NCBI GenBank assembly: GCA_003599475.1
Contig: QZKK01000244.1
Coordinates: 1-12,682 of the forward strand
Length of the DNA stretch: 12,682 bases
Source: Desulfobacteraceae bacterium
GTDB lineage: Bacteria; Desulfobacterota; Desulfobacteria; Desulfobacterales; SURF-15
Direction: 5' to 3'
In this document: positions 37-3,585 of the stretch, piece after piece
Layout: every line of letters begins with the position of its first letter
Numbering within the stretch: the first letter of the stretch is position 1
The notes under the pieces: model-generated
Databases searched by the model: none
What the model saw: only the letters and a program-made list of their open reading frames with translations
Told to the model about the DNA's origin: nothing
Program-made: the position numbers and the translations under genes

Positions 37-2544
37 ATGAGGGTTCGGGGAGTGGTTGAAAAGATCCAAGATAAATGCCTGCTATGCGATTTCCCCCTGG
101 GCCGTTCCCGTTTTCAAAAAGAATTCGACGGACAGATGCATGCATTCTGCTGCCCGGGATGCCTGCACGTATACGAGATTCTTTCCAGCCGTCCGGATGC
201 CGCCTCCGGTGATTTTCGAAATTCAGATTTATACCGGGCGTTCGATGCGGCAGGTTTGATCCGGCAGGGGGGTGGAGACGAATCTCCCGCCGGGAACGAT
301 TCTTTGGCGGATCGGGAATCGGAACTGGCCGAAGAGGGCAATTGGAGGATCGAGGGGATGTGGTGCACCGCCTGCGGCTGGGTCATCGAGGAGGTCATCC
401 GCAAGACACCGGGCATCCTCTCGGCGGAAGTTTCATTCATCACCGACAGCCTCCGCATCCGATACCTTCCCCACCGGCTCGAGCTCGAAGGTTTGAAGAA
501 AAGAATCGCCGATTTTGGATATCGAATGGCGGACTTTTCAGCGCAGGACGAAAACGACCGGGTCAAAAAAGACCTTCTGGTTCGATTCGGCGTCTCATCG
601 ATTTTGACGATGAACATCATGATGATCTCCTTTTCCCTCTATTTCGGATTTTTGGGCGTGCTGGACGACGCAGCCGTGCGGTATCTTTCGTACCCGATCG
701 CACTGATGGGAACCGCCGTCGTATTTTACGGAGGATTTCCGATCCTGAGAAACGCATGGAAGAGCATCCGTGTCGGCAGCATGACCATGGACGCCCTCAT
801 CGGTACCGGTGCCCTGTCCGCCTATTTCTACAGCATCGTGCGGATGCGAAGCGGCAGTATTCATCTCTATTTCGATACTGCCTCCATGCTGATCACTCTG
901 GTCCTGCTGGGCAGACTCATCGATATCCATATCCGGCACAAGATCACTGCAGGTATCGATGCCCTTCACCGGCTGTCCCGGCAGAAGGTGCGCCTGATAT
1001 ATTGTGGCCGTGAGCGCTGGACAGATCCGGAGGCGGTGCAGGTGGGGGAATTGTTTCAGGTACGGGAAGGGGAAAGGGTCCCCATCGACGGCCGGATCGT
1101 CAGCGGAAGAGCACGCCTGGATGAATCGATACTCACCGGGGAGTCGCGCCCGGTTTCAAAAAAGATCGGAGAAGATGTCCGTGCAGGATCGCTCCTGATC
1201 GAAGGGGAAGCCTGCCTGGAGGCTATCCGGATCGGTTCCGAGAGCACGGTCGGGCAGATGATTTCTCTGGTGCAGCAAGCCCTTACCCGGAAAAACACAT
1301 CCGAAGACCTGGCAGACAGGATCACCCGCAAGCTGGTTCCTCTGATTCTACTGCTGTCTGCAGGTACCGCCGTTTTCTGGCATCTCTACACGAAAGACAT
1401 CGACGAATCGCTGCTCAGGGCCATTACCGTCCTGGTGATCACCTGCCCGTGTGCACTCGGAATAGCGGTTCCGCTGGCAAAAGTAGCGGCCATCAGCTTC
1501 GGCCGATCGAAGGGCGTCCTGATCCGATCCCAGGAAGCACTCGAAAAAGTGAGGGATCTGGATACGATCGTCCTGGACAAAACCGGTACGCTTACCGAGG
1601 GCCGGTTCGCGCTTCGGCATATCCATACGGCATCTTCCGATACTCCCGGAGTTTTGGAACGGCTTGCCGCGGTGGAGTCGCACTCGGATCATTTCCTGGC
1701 CGGAGAGATCCTGCGGCGTGCCGCATCAGAAGGCATTTCCGTTCAGAAAGCGGAAAACTTTCAAAGCTTTGAAGGTTTGGGCGTCAGCGGGATCTATCGG
1801 AGAGAGGAGATCTTTGCCGGCAATCGATCTTTCATGGACAGGCAGGGTCTTGCATCCACCCGCCCCGATGTGGACCGTCTTGCAGAATCCTACGAAAGAT
1901 CGGGAATGACCACCGTTTTTTTCGGATGGCAGGGTGTTGTTCAAGGATTCCTTGCATTCGGAGATCAGATAAAGCCGACATCCCGAATCACGATCGAGAA
2001 GTTGCGCTCTAGAGGACTGGAAGTCCGGCTGCTTTCGGGCGATTCCATCGAAACCACCCGGGCGGTTGCCCGGGAGCTGGGAATCGATGCGTTCAAAGGC
2101 CAAATGCTTCCTGCTGAAAAGGCAGAGGTCATTTGCAGCCTGCAGGCAGAAGGCCGCCGGGTCGGGATGGTCGGAGACGGGGTCAACGATGCACCGGCGC
2201 TTGCCGCTTCCGATCTTGGTTTCGCAATGGGCGGCCGGGCAAATCCTCTGCAATCCGCTTCGGATCTGACCCTGCTTTCAAGCGATCCGGCGGTCCTGGA
2301 CGAGATGTTCAGCCTCTCCCTCCTCGCCTCACGGGTTCTCCGGCAGAACCTTTTTTTTGCCTTCATCTACAACGTTCTAGGGATTCCTCTGGCAATCGGC
2401 GGCCTGCTCAATCCGCTGATTGCAGTCGTCGCCATGTTCGCCAGCAGCCTGACCGTGATCGGCAACACGCTGAGAATCTCAAACTCTAAAAAAGAGCCTC
2501 GGAGACATTTGGCGCCCCATATCCATCACCTGCCCGGTTCATGA
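37..2544 (+). CDS. ccoI: Cu+-translocating P1B-type ATPase, CcoI/FixI-like
   Basis: Inner-membrane copper pump of 835 aa. Members of this subgroup export Cu+ to the periplasm for assembly of cbb3-type cytochrome oxidase. The N-terminus has a cysteine-rich cap (C14-x2-C17 and CCPGC at 38-42), typical of CcoI/FixI and absent from plain CopA. A heavy-metal-associated domain follows, with GMWCTAC at 107-113. Next come membrane helices from about 180, the actuator motif TGES (367-370), the membrane metal site CPC (470-472), the phosphorylation motif DKTGT (D514) and the hinge GDGVNDAP (713-720). The late helices carry the Cu+ signatures YN (778-779) and MxxSS (800-804). The nucleotide-domain HP motif reads HF at 552-553. 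An in-frame TAG lies directly before ATG 37; no clear Shine-Dalgarno is visible, and GTG 52 is an alternative start. Upstream cco genes, if any, lie outside the window. The stop abuts that of the convergent cyclase gene. Family assignment is firm; the specific cbb3 role is inferred. Confidence 0.93.
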   Translation: MRVRGVVEKIQDKCLLCDFPLGRSRFQKEFDGQMHAFCCPGCLHVYEILSSRPDAASGDFRNSDLYRAFDAAGLIRQGGGDESPAGNDSLADRESELAEEGNWRIEGMWCTACGWVIEEVIRKTPGILSAEVSFITDSLRIRYLPHRLELEGLKKRIADFGYRMADFSAQDENDRVKKDLLVRFGVSSILTMNIMMISFSLYFGFLGVLDDAAVRYLSYPIALMGTAVVFYGGFPILRNAWKSIRVGSMTMDALIGTGALSAYFYSIVRMRSGSIHLYFDTASMLITLVLLGRLIDIHIRHKITAGIDALHRLSRQKVRLIYCGRERWTDPEAVQVGELFQVREGERVPIDGRIVSGRARLDESILTGESRPVSKKIGEDVRAGSLLIEGEACLEAIRIGSESTVGQMISLVQQALTRKNTSEDLADRITRKLVPLILLLSAGTAVFWHLYTKDIDESLLRAITVLVITCPCALGIAVPLAKVAAISFGRSKGVLIRSQEALEKVRDLDTIVLDKTGTLTEGRFALRHIHTASSDTPGVLERLAAVESHSDHFLAGEILRRAASEGISVQKAENFQSFEGLGVSGIYRREEIFAGNRSFMDRQGLASTRPDVDRLAESYERSGMTTVFFGWQGVVQGFLAFGDQIKPTSRITIEKLRSRGLEVRLLSGDSIETTRAVARELGIDAFKGQMLPAEKAEVICSLQAEGRRVGMVGDGVNDAPALAASDLGFAMGGRANPLQSASDLTLLSSDPAVLDEMFSLSLLASRVLRQNLFFAFIYNVLGIPLAIGGLLNPLIAVVAMFASSLTVIGNTLRISNSKKEPRRHLAPHIHHLPGS

Positions 2545-3585
2545 TTCAGGTTTGAAGCTTTTGCCGGTGGAAGCCGGTGGAGGATAGATGGATCCGGTGA
2601 TGTCGCCGACCGCGTTTTTCCCCTTGCTCTTTACATTGAACATTGCCTGGTCCGCCTTGGCAAGCATGGCCCTTATATCTGCGGCATCGCCGGGATATGT
2701 GGATACACCGAAGCTGGCCTGAAGGCGGAGGCCGTTTTCAACGGCCGCCAGGTAGACCGTGTTCAGCATCCTGGATTGAATTTCCTTTGCCTTTTCCAGC
2801 GCCTGCGCTTTGTCGAAGCCGGGAAGCACGACAACAAACTCGTCTCCGCCATAAGCGACGCCATAAGCGGGCTCTGCAATGGAAAGCCTGATGGTCTCCG
2901 CCACCTCCGCCAGCGCCTGGCTGCCGTTCAGGTGGCCGTGCGTATCCACCACACGCTTGAAATTGTCAATATCCATAAATATCAGGGAAAACCGGGATTT
3001 CCGGGACTCACTTTCAACAACGAGCGCTTCCATGGCCTGGTATAGATAACGTGTGTTGTAAAGTCCGGTCAAATTGTCATGAACAGACAGATAACGGTAC
3101 TCCTCCCTGCTGCGCTTGAGCTCTTCCTCGGCTTTGATCCGCTCTGCGATTTCGATTCTGAGCCGTTCGTTTTTCTCTTTTATTTCATTTCGAGAATGGT
3201 AAAGCTCCAGATGAGTCTTGACCCTGGCCTGTAATTCAGCCCCGTTGAAGGGTTTTGTCAGATAATCCATCGCGCCGAGCTCGAATCCTTTGACGATGCT
3301 GTCCGAGTCATTTTTTGCGGTTAGAAATATGATGGGGATATCCCGGTTTGCAGGATTCTTTCGAATCCTCCGGCATACTTCAAATCCATCCATATGCGGC
3401 ATCATGATATCGAGCAGGATCAGGTCAAACCGGTTGGCCTCGGCCTGGTCGACAGCCCTTTCGCCATCCTGCGCAAAGGCCATCTGATATCCGCTTTTTT
3501 GCAGGATATTTGCCGCCACCTGGATATTCTTGGGGATGTCGTCCACGATCAGGATTTTGTATCTTGGCTCATTTTCGGGGTCCAT
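2539..3585 (-). CDS. REC-GGDEF response regulator; candidate Hypr-type (cGAMP) cyclase
   Basis: Cytoplasmic response regulator of 348 aa, last gene of the signalling operon. A receiver domain spans about 8-125, with acidic pocket DD15-16, phospho-acceptor D59 in LLDIMMP and K111 in TKP. A coiled-coil linker (about 130-165) leads to a GGDEF domain (about 165-330) with an intact GGDEF at 246-250. Catalytic metal ligand D205 and K210 are present. Two changes stand out by gap-free alignment to PleD. The guanine-contact residues N335 and D344 are V213 and S222, in the stretch VVDTHGHLNGS. The RxxD inhibitory site is AEPA at 237-240. Ser at the D344 position is known from Hypr GGDEF enzymes, which make 3',3'-cGAMP, so product identity is uncertain; ordinary c-di-GMP synthesis or mixed products remain possible. 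The start is supported by AAGGA 8 nt upstream. The gene overlaps the upstream kinase by 17 bp, suggesting translational coupling and a cognate pair. Confidence 0.93.
   Translation of the reverse strand: MDPENEPRYKILIVDDIPKNIQVAANILQKSGYQMAFAQDGERAVDQAEANRFDLILLDIMMPHMDGFEVCRRIRKNPANRDIPIIFLTAKNDSDSIVKGFELGAMDYLTKPFNGAELQARVKTHLELYHSRNEIKEKNERLRIEIAERIKAEEELKRSREEYRYLSVHDNLTGLYNTRYLYQAMEALVVESESRKSRFSLIFMDIDNFKRVVDTHGHLNGSQALAEVAETIRLSIAEPAYGVAYGGDEFVVVLPGFDKAQALEKAKEIQSRMLNTVYLAAVENGLRLQASFGVSTYPGDAADIRAMLAKADQAMFNVKSKGKNAVGDITGSIYPPPASTGKSFKPES

What the first reader, a model, noticed from the sequence alone, without database searches (positions are those of the whole stretch)
2539..3585. 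GGDEF response regulator with Hypr-type substitutions: candidate cGAMP synthase
Aligning without gaps to PleD from the metal-binding Asp (D205 here, D327 in PleD) to the GGDEF motif, the two guanine-contacting residues N335 and D344 are V213 and S222. Ser at the D344 position is the described specificity determinant of Hypr GGDEF enzymes (GacA of Geobacter sulfurreducens), which make 3',3'-cGAMP. GacA is, as I recall, also a response-regulator cyclase from a deltaproteobacterium. The GGDEF motif and metal ligands are intact, so the enzyme should be active.
Basis: partly seen in the sequence, partly recalled or inferred. Interest (0 to 1): 0.8.

Follow-up and report, generated by a model that had tools for sequence, protein, structure and literature searches.

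The report
Odd relative of cGAMP-making GGDEF enzymes
The gene encodes a bacterial signalling enzyme from a large, conserved family that has replaced both amino acids normally used to recognise guanine, so it probably uses ATP as well as GTP and makes a mixed or adenine-based messenger; this has not been shown by experiment.

Summary
Observation confirmed. Window 2539-3585 (-) encodes a 348-aa REC-GGDEF protein. Ungapped to PleD it carries V213 (for N335), S222 (for D344) and an intact GGDEF.

(1) T178 replaces the cross-dimer Arg also changed in Hypr enzymes. (2) Val at 335 is not a GacA feature: GacA keeps Asn, as do the 30 loci that best match GacA. (3) Val335 with Ser344 is a family trait: Val335 is in 238 of 238 proteins from two capped homologue lists (window's included) and in the 88 readable of 90 domains examined among 144 genome matches. 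The V335 domains form one clade (99/90, key columns removed), outside the GacA-like rows; residue 344 is mostly Ser and never Asp in 90 V335 rows. Inputs are REC, GAF or PAS; 118 of 389 class genomes hold a candidate.

The gene ends a conserved operon: TonB receptor, YfiR-like protein, CHASE8 hybrid kinase, this cyclase.

Best reading: phospho-activated, adenine-accepting cyclase making mainly 3',3'-cGAMP; a new Hypr-like subfamily. cGAMP-type riboswitches co-occur only partly (13 of 118 vs 8 of 271 genomes). Product untested.

The parts
2539..3585 (-). REC-GGDEF response regulator, 348 aa (the finding)
3217..3555 (-). receiver domain, residues 11-123; phospho-acceptor D59, acidic pair D15/D16, K111
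2614..3084 (-). GGDEF domain, residues 168-324
3052..3054 (-). codon of T178, position of the cross-dimer Arg (R300 PleD, Arg537 of the Idiomarina enzyme, Tyr304 of GmGacA)
   Evidence: position mapped by me on the ungapped alignments
2947..2949 (-). codon of V213, position of guanine-contacting N335 of PleD / Asn339 of GmGacA
2920..2922 (-). codon of S222, position of D344 of PleD / Ser348 of GmGacA
2836..2850 (-). GGDEF motif, residues 246-250 (metal D248, general base E249)
3569..5881 (-). hybrid histidine kinase CHASE8-HAMP-HisKA-HATPase-REC, 770 aa (H288, D582; GAIVF motif at 64 in CHASE8); overlaps the cyclase gene by 17 bases
5874..6461 (-). YfiR/HmsC-like protein (DUF4154), 195 aa
   Evidence: next to kinase and cyclase in 5 of 5 close relatives
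6467..8563 (-). TonB-dependent receptor, 698 aa, first gene of the operon
   Evidence: present in 3 of 5 relatives, the other 2 contigs begin at the YfiR-like gene

Best explanation
The protein is a phosphorylation-activated dinucleotide cyclase of a distinct GGDEF subfamily (call it V335/S344) that has given up both base contacts that make ordinary enzymes read guanine. A periplasmic YfiR-like protein, perhaps linked to the TonB receptor, controls the CHASE8 domain of the hybrid kinase; the kinase phosphorylates D59 of the receiver; the dimer then condenses two purine triphosphates. Because Ser replaces Asp at the Watson-Crick edge and Val replaces Asn at the sugar edge, ATP is accepted at least as well as in GacA, and the main product is most likely 3',3'-cGAMP, with c-di-AMP and c-di-GMP as side products. 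The canonical RxxD inhibition site is missing, so product feedback through that site is not expected. Shown: residues, conservation, clade, operon. Inferred: phosphotransfer, YfiR control, ATP use, product.
For: Catalytic residues kept while the base contacts are changed and then fixed: Val335 in 238 of 238 proteins from two capped lists and in 88 readable of 90 domains examined out of 144 matches. In 173 unique GGDEF domains from all loci Val335 never occurs with Asp344. All 90 V335 rows have the central Asp of GGDEF, as the Goldilocks model asks of Ser/Thr344 enzymes (PMC6456294). Cross-dimer Arg is replaced (T, Q, A, I or S) in 74 of the 87 V335 rows with a letter there. One clade, 99/90, with the three key columns removed. 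GacA is the nearest solved GGDEF domain by sequence. Operon conserved; YfiR-YfiN systems with kinase output are described (PMC3375315, section 12). cGAMP-type (A20) riboswitches are commoner in genomes with a V335 candidate: 13 of 118 vs 8 of 271, Fisher p 0.0025; for the close REC-GGDEF set 4 of 10 vs 17 of 379, p 0.001.
Against: No assay. N335 is said to be essential for GGDEF activity (PMC7288161, passage). 105 of 118 V335-candidate genomes have no A20-type riboswitch by my pattern; tier 1 alone, which holds the window protein's group, is not significant (9 of 100 vs 12 of 289, p 0.07); tier-2 TV[S/A] gives 0 of 8; the genomes behind L001, L005 and L008 have none. Of 24 GEMM aptamers read in V335 genomes 20 have G at position 20, the c-di-GMP type, and 4 have A. 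The Fisher tests ignore shared ancestry and several subsets were tried. Thirteen tier-1 domains keep the cross-dimer Arg, a feature linked to more c-di-GMP. No Rfam family reaches threshold in the window.
Confidence: 0.55

Rival explanations
1. Adenine-preferring cyclase: loss of Asn335 removes the contact on the sugar-edge side of guanine and a valine there disfavours guanine, so ATP is the main substrate and c-di-AMP (or another adenine dinucleotide) the main product.
For: Val335 is fixed in the clade, while GacA, which still binds GTP better than ATP (Table 1 of PMC6456294, passage), and the 30 loci that best match it keep Asn. 105 of 118 candidate genomes lack an A20 riboswitch by my pattern.
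Against: No direct evidence; A20 (cGAMP-type) riboswitches are enriched in V335-candidate genomes; GacA with Asn already makes c-di-AMP in vitro, so Val need not mean adenine preference.
Confidence: 0.2
2. Catalytically weak or inactive GGDEF used as a phosphorylation-controlled dimer or nucleotide sensor.
For: N335 is described as essential in GGDEF domains (PMC7288161, passage); both base contacts are gone.
Against: D205, K210 and D248 are kept in 121 of 121 and E249 in 120 of 121 close homologues; a degenerate domain would be expected to vary there.
Confidence: 0.15
3. Ordinary diguanylate cyclase that tolerates Ser/Val.
For: A D-to-S mutant of GSU3350 stayed a diguanylate cyclase (PMC6456294); 13 tier-1 relatives keep the cross-dimer Arg; most GEMM aptamers read in V335 genomes are of the G20, c-di-GMP type (20 of 24).
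Against: All 23 N335/D344 rows in the tree lie outside the V335 clade; the window protein has Thr at the cross-dimer site.
Confidence: 0.1

Closest known systems
GacA of Geobacter (GSU1658 / Gmet_1914, PDB 6d9m), Hypr GGDEF
   Same: Ser at 344, GGDEF with central Asp, non-Arg cross-dimer residue, Lys at PleD R446; receiver input (the PDB molecule name says response receiver)
   Different: GacA keeps Asn339, Arg before YGGDE, the RxxD I-site and has a GAF domain; window protein has Val, Ala, no RxxD, no GAF; separate clade
Bd0367 of Bdellovibrio, Hypr GGDEF
   Same: REC-GGDEF with Ser at the selectivity site; makes cGAMP, c-di-GMP, some c-di-AMP (PMC9140294, passages)
   Different: Has an I-site (R260) and Met at the cross-dimer site; its residue at 335 could not be checked here
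PleD / WspR, canonical REC-GGDEF diguanylate cyclases
   Same: Receiver plus GGDEF and similar folds; phospho-activation expected
   Different: N335, D344 and R300 of PleD all replaced here; no RxxD I-site
YfiBNR system (YfiR-YfiN) of Pseudomonas
   Same: YfiR-like protein next to a CHASE8 sensor with a GAIVF stretch like the AAVVF motif proposed to bind YfiR
   Different: Output is a hybrid kinase with the cyclase as a separate response regulator; no YfiB gene seen in the operon, a TonB receptor instead; YfiN-like proteins with kinase outputs were already noted in PMC3375315

Membership tests
Hypr GGDEF (GacA type) | Ser or Thr at PleD 344 | tested here: met
   S222
Hypr GGDEF (GacA type) | central Asp in GG[D]E[F/Y] | tested here: met
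   D248; rule from PMC6456294
Hypr GGDEF (GacA type) | cross-dimer Arg replaced | tested here: met
   T178 invariant in 121 of 121; position by ungapped alignment
Hypr GGDEF (GacA type) | Asn at PleD 335 kept (feature of GacA, not part of the published definition as I found it) | tested here: not met
   V213; Asn in 30 of 30 loci best matching GacA (L245-L274)
Hypr GGDEF (GacA type) | RxxD I-site (present in GacA and Bd0367) | tested here: not met
   absent in the window protein and in 67 of 67 tier-1 V335 rows; present in 30 of 30 GacA-like rows
Hypr GGDEF (GacA type) | groups with GacA in a tree | tested here: inconclusive
   own V335 clade 99/90; V335+GacA-like as one clade not rejected (AU p 0.36) but not in the best tree
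Hypr GGDEF (GacA type) | makes 3',3'-cGAMP | not testable with these tools
   needs an enzyme assay
Hypr GGDEF (GacA type) | cGAMP (GEMM-Ib, A20) riboswitches in the same genomes | tested here: inconclusive
   13 of 118 vs 8 of 271; the window's own genome is not held
Canonical diguanylate cyclase | N335 and D344 guanine contacts | tested here: not met
   V213, S222
Yfi signalling module | YfiR-like protein beside a CHASE8 sensor | tested here: met
   Pfam PF13689 and PF17152; same order in 5 of 5 relatives

The most novel reading that the evidence does not exclude
A large GGDEF subfamily, attached to REC, GAF and PAS inputs and common in Desulfobacterota, has lost both guanine contacts together and works as an ATP-preferring cyclase that makes c-di-AMP or another adenine dinucleotide, giving these bacteria a GGDEF-based messenger separate from c-di-GMP and from GacA-type cGAMP signalling.
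Probability: 0.2. Interest if true: 0.85.

Novelty: new variant of a known kind. Interest (0 to 1): 0.57.

Why it matters
Hypr enzymes are described as rare (0.17% of GGDEF domains; PMC9140294, passage), yet a clade with the Hypr serine plus a second change at the other guanine contact has candidates in 118 of 389 sampled genomes of one class. I found no description of that second change in the papers listed or opened. It offers a natural test of how GGDEF enzymes choose their nucleotide: change Val213 and Ser222 singly and together. It also ties such an enzyme to an upstream pathway (YfiR-like protein and CHASE8 kinase), so signal and messenger can be studied together.

Tried and rejected
The Rfam scan of the window found nothing at threshold. 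Foldseek of the AlphaFold model (mean pLDDT 83, pTM 0.53) gave REC-GGDEF structures first and 6d9m at rank 16 (38% identity), adding nothing on specificity. Hallberg 2016 (PNAS) is not held, so I could not check the residue at 335 in the other Hypr enzymes tested there: an open gap in the novelty claim.

Considered and rejected: GacA ortholog (separate clade, Asn lost); the metal-transport ATPase as part of the system (no match in the stretches fetched around the operon in five relatives, though two of these reach only about 0.4 and 1 kb past the cyclase); a chance Ser/Val.

Limits of counts: tier 1 and tier 2 were split by bit score; 90 of the 144 matches were examined and 88 read, 54 were not looked at. 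The genome lists were typed; five short fragments were counted as tier 1, one of them unread (L213). In one search rows lacking letters at 335 or 344 would be dropped; none of the 173 was (67+23+30+53). The domain set was gathered by similarity to the window's domain. One of 24 pattern matches (G348:C358) does not look like a riboswitch; G348 has another that does. The A20 rule: position mapped by me on the Rfam model; G20A as the switch towards cGAMP is supported by passages of PMC6274999 and PMC7288161.

On recheck I mended the following: the N335/D344 rows in the tree are 23, not 53; the match total is 144; the GEMM reading was recounted in a new call (81).
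Full report
What is there. The minus-strand gene at 2539-3585 encodes 348 residues: receiver domain 11-123 and GGDEF domain 168-324. The ungapped alignment to PleD gives D205=D327, V213=N335, S222=D344, T178=R300 and GGDEF at 246-250. Receiver residues D15, D16, D59, K111 and catalytic K210, D248, E249, K319 are in place.

First, T178 sits at the cross-dimer site where 94% of predicted diguanylate cyclases have Arg and GmGacA has Tyr (PMC6456294, section 13). Second, Val at 335 is not a GacA trait. 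In the GmGacA structure the base is held by Ser348 and Asn339 (section 12), and the alignment to 6d9m shows that Asn against our Val. Third, the RxxD inhibition site is absent.

Conservation. A search with the whole protein scored 8000 candidates (a cap), 7987 of them at E 0.001 or better; the best 120 were listed. With the window protein that makes 121 sequences: V213, S222, T178, A244 and K323 are invariant in 121 of 121, GGDEF in 120 of 121 with one GGDDF. A search with the GGDEF part of a GAF-GGDEF relative (also capped) listed 120, three of them already counted; the other 117 are QVS 84, TVS 29 and TVT 4 at sites 300/335/344, one of them with GCDEF for GGDEF. By the precomputed Pfam domains their inputs are GAF, PAS, or PAS plus receiver. 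These lists are best hits and so biased towards likeness.

Genome survey. The protein was sought in 389 genomes of the class of a Desulfatitalea genome: 10 have a match at E 1e-90 or better. An alignment of 16 such GGDEF domains found 118 of 389 genomes with a match at 1e-45 or better, 144 matches in all by my count. I examined 90 of them (loci L155-L184 from that call; 60 more). 88 could be read and all have Val at 335: VS 79, VN 3, VA 3, VT 2, VG 1; two fragments were unread. A GacA GGDEF query against 395 genomes of the phylum matched in 289 at the loose 1e-30; the 30 loci given for its best matches all keep Asn335, with Ser 24, Gly 5 and Thr 1 at 344. Over 173 unique domains from all loci, Val335 never occurs with Asp344. 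By group: tier-1 V335 67 rows, RxxD in 0, Ala before YGGDEF in 66; tier-2 V335 23 rows, RxxD in 1, Lys, Arg or His before Y; GacA-like 30 rows, RxxD and Arg before Y in 30; N335/D344 53 rows, RxxD in 33. All V335 and GacA-like rows have the central Asp of GGDEF; the N335/D344 rows have 20 Asp and 33 Glu. The sample was drawn by similarity to V335 and GacA queries, so it is not a fair census of GGDEF domains.

Tree. With the three key columns removed, 87 domains (45 V335, 19 GacA-like, 23 N335/D344) give one V335 clade, bootstrap 99 and SH-aLRT 90, found in 100% of 200 bootstrap trees (a quick tree agrees, SH-aLRT 92). The window protein lies in a 28-row V335 part (100/99). In the quick tree the GacA-like rows branch next to the clade, within a weakly supported set (86). 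In the careful tree neither the GacA-like rows as one clade (AU p 0.37) nor V335 plus GacA-like as one clade (p 0.36) is recovered, and neither is rejected. I did not print the careful tree's drawing.

Operon. On the minus strand: TonB receptor 6467-8563, YfiR-like 5874-6461, CHASE8-HAMP hybrid kinase 3569-5881, cyclase 2539-3585, with a gap of 5 bases and overlaps of 8 and 17. In the five genomes with relatives of 70-80% identity, YfiR-like gene, kinase and cyclase stand in the same order in 5 of 5 (in L278 the kinase ORF is shorter, 628 aa); the TonB receptor is present in 3, and the other 2 contigs begin at the YfiR-like gene. In three of the five more distant genomes (52-55%), those I examined, the cyclase has other neighbours with no match to these genes. 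The kinase CHASE8 domain holds GAIVF, like the AAVVF stretch proposed to bind YfiR in YfiN (PMC3375315, passages; match). A like stretch is found by my pattern in the kinases of 3 of 5 relatives and not in 2. YfiN-like proteins with sensor-kinase output were reported in that paper (section 12), so this half of the system is not new.

Downstream. All 13 V335-bearing genomes tested have class-I GEMM riboswitches over the family's cut-off. Of 24 aptamers that a simple pattern read in the 30 loci given there, 20 have G at position 20, the c-di-GMP type, and 4 have A, the cGAMP type. A pattern for the A20 type matches in 21 of 389 genomes; its reversed control shows no match. A20 occurs in 13 of 118 genomes with a V335 candidate and 8 of 271 without (p 0.0025); in 9 of 100 with tier 1 (p 0.07), 5 of 15 with the tier-2 [A/S]-V type (p 0.0006) and 0 of 8 with tier-2 TV[S/A]; in 4 of 10 with the close REC-GGDEF (p 0.001). 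Several subsets were tested and ancestry was not corrected for. This favours cGAMP in part of the clade and leaves the messenger's receptor unknown in most of it.

Mechanism. By the published GacA work, Ser at 344 can meet adenine or guanine and needs the short Asp in GGDEF. Removing Asn335 removes the sugar-edge contact; I infer that this weakens guanine preference further than in GacA, whose Asn is kept and whose GTP binding is still tighter than ATP (Table 1, passage). The most likely product is cGAMP; c-di-AMP is the boldest reading not excluded. N335 is described as essential in GGDEF domains (passage), so inactivity is a live rival, weakened by the strict conservation of the catalytic set.

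Verdict. A real and conserved altered-specificity GGDEF subfamily, Hypr-like in three tested features and unlike GacA in three others (335, I-site, residue before YGGDE): a new variant of a known kind. Searches listed no paper that I could see to describe Val at 335 with Ser at 344; I opened sections or passages of PMC6456294, PMC9140294, PMC8835794, PMC8844925, PMC6274999, PMC12943098, PMC7288161 and PMC3375315 only, and the 2016 founding paper could not be read.

Noticed in passing
L105:1501-1857 (-), genome G271: Four class-I GEMM aptamers in tandem before a gene that by eye looks lipase-like; two copies have A20 (cGAMP type), at least one has G20: a possible two-messenger gate.
   Followed up: partly
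L098, L099, L165: Close relatives with Asn instead of Ser at 344 (TVN), and L191, L193, L198 with Ala (TVA): natural specificity variants inside the V335 clade.
   Followed up: partly
L148, L149 (genomes G145, G174); L142, L153: A20-type riboswitch about 400 bases upstream of a gene that by eye looks like a GAF/PAS sensor, in genomes with tier-2 V335 cyclases; in L142 and L153 the gene looks like a cyclic-nucleotide-binding protein (no family scan done).
   Followed up: no
window 37-2544 (+): Heavy-metal P-type ATPase with a weak N-terminal PF12156 match (below its cut-off), convergent with the cyclase gene and overlapping its end by 6 bases; not seen beside the operon in the relatives' stretches fetched.
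   Followed up: partly
window 12156-12515 (-): Small protein joining DUF7218 and a Rho_N-like domain.
   Followed up: no
P0203, P0213, P0216, P0217: V335 cyclases with Thr at 344; P0213 is named Candidatus Tectomicrobia by its source, so the clade may reach outside Desulfobacterota.
   Followed up: no
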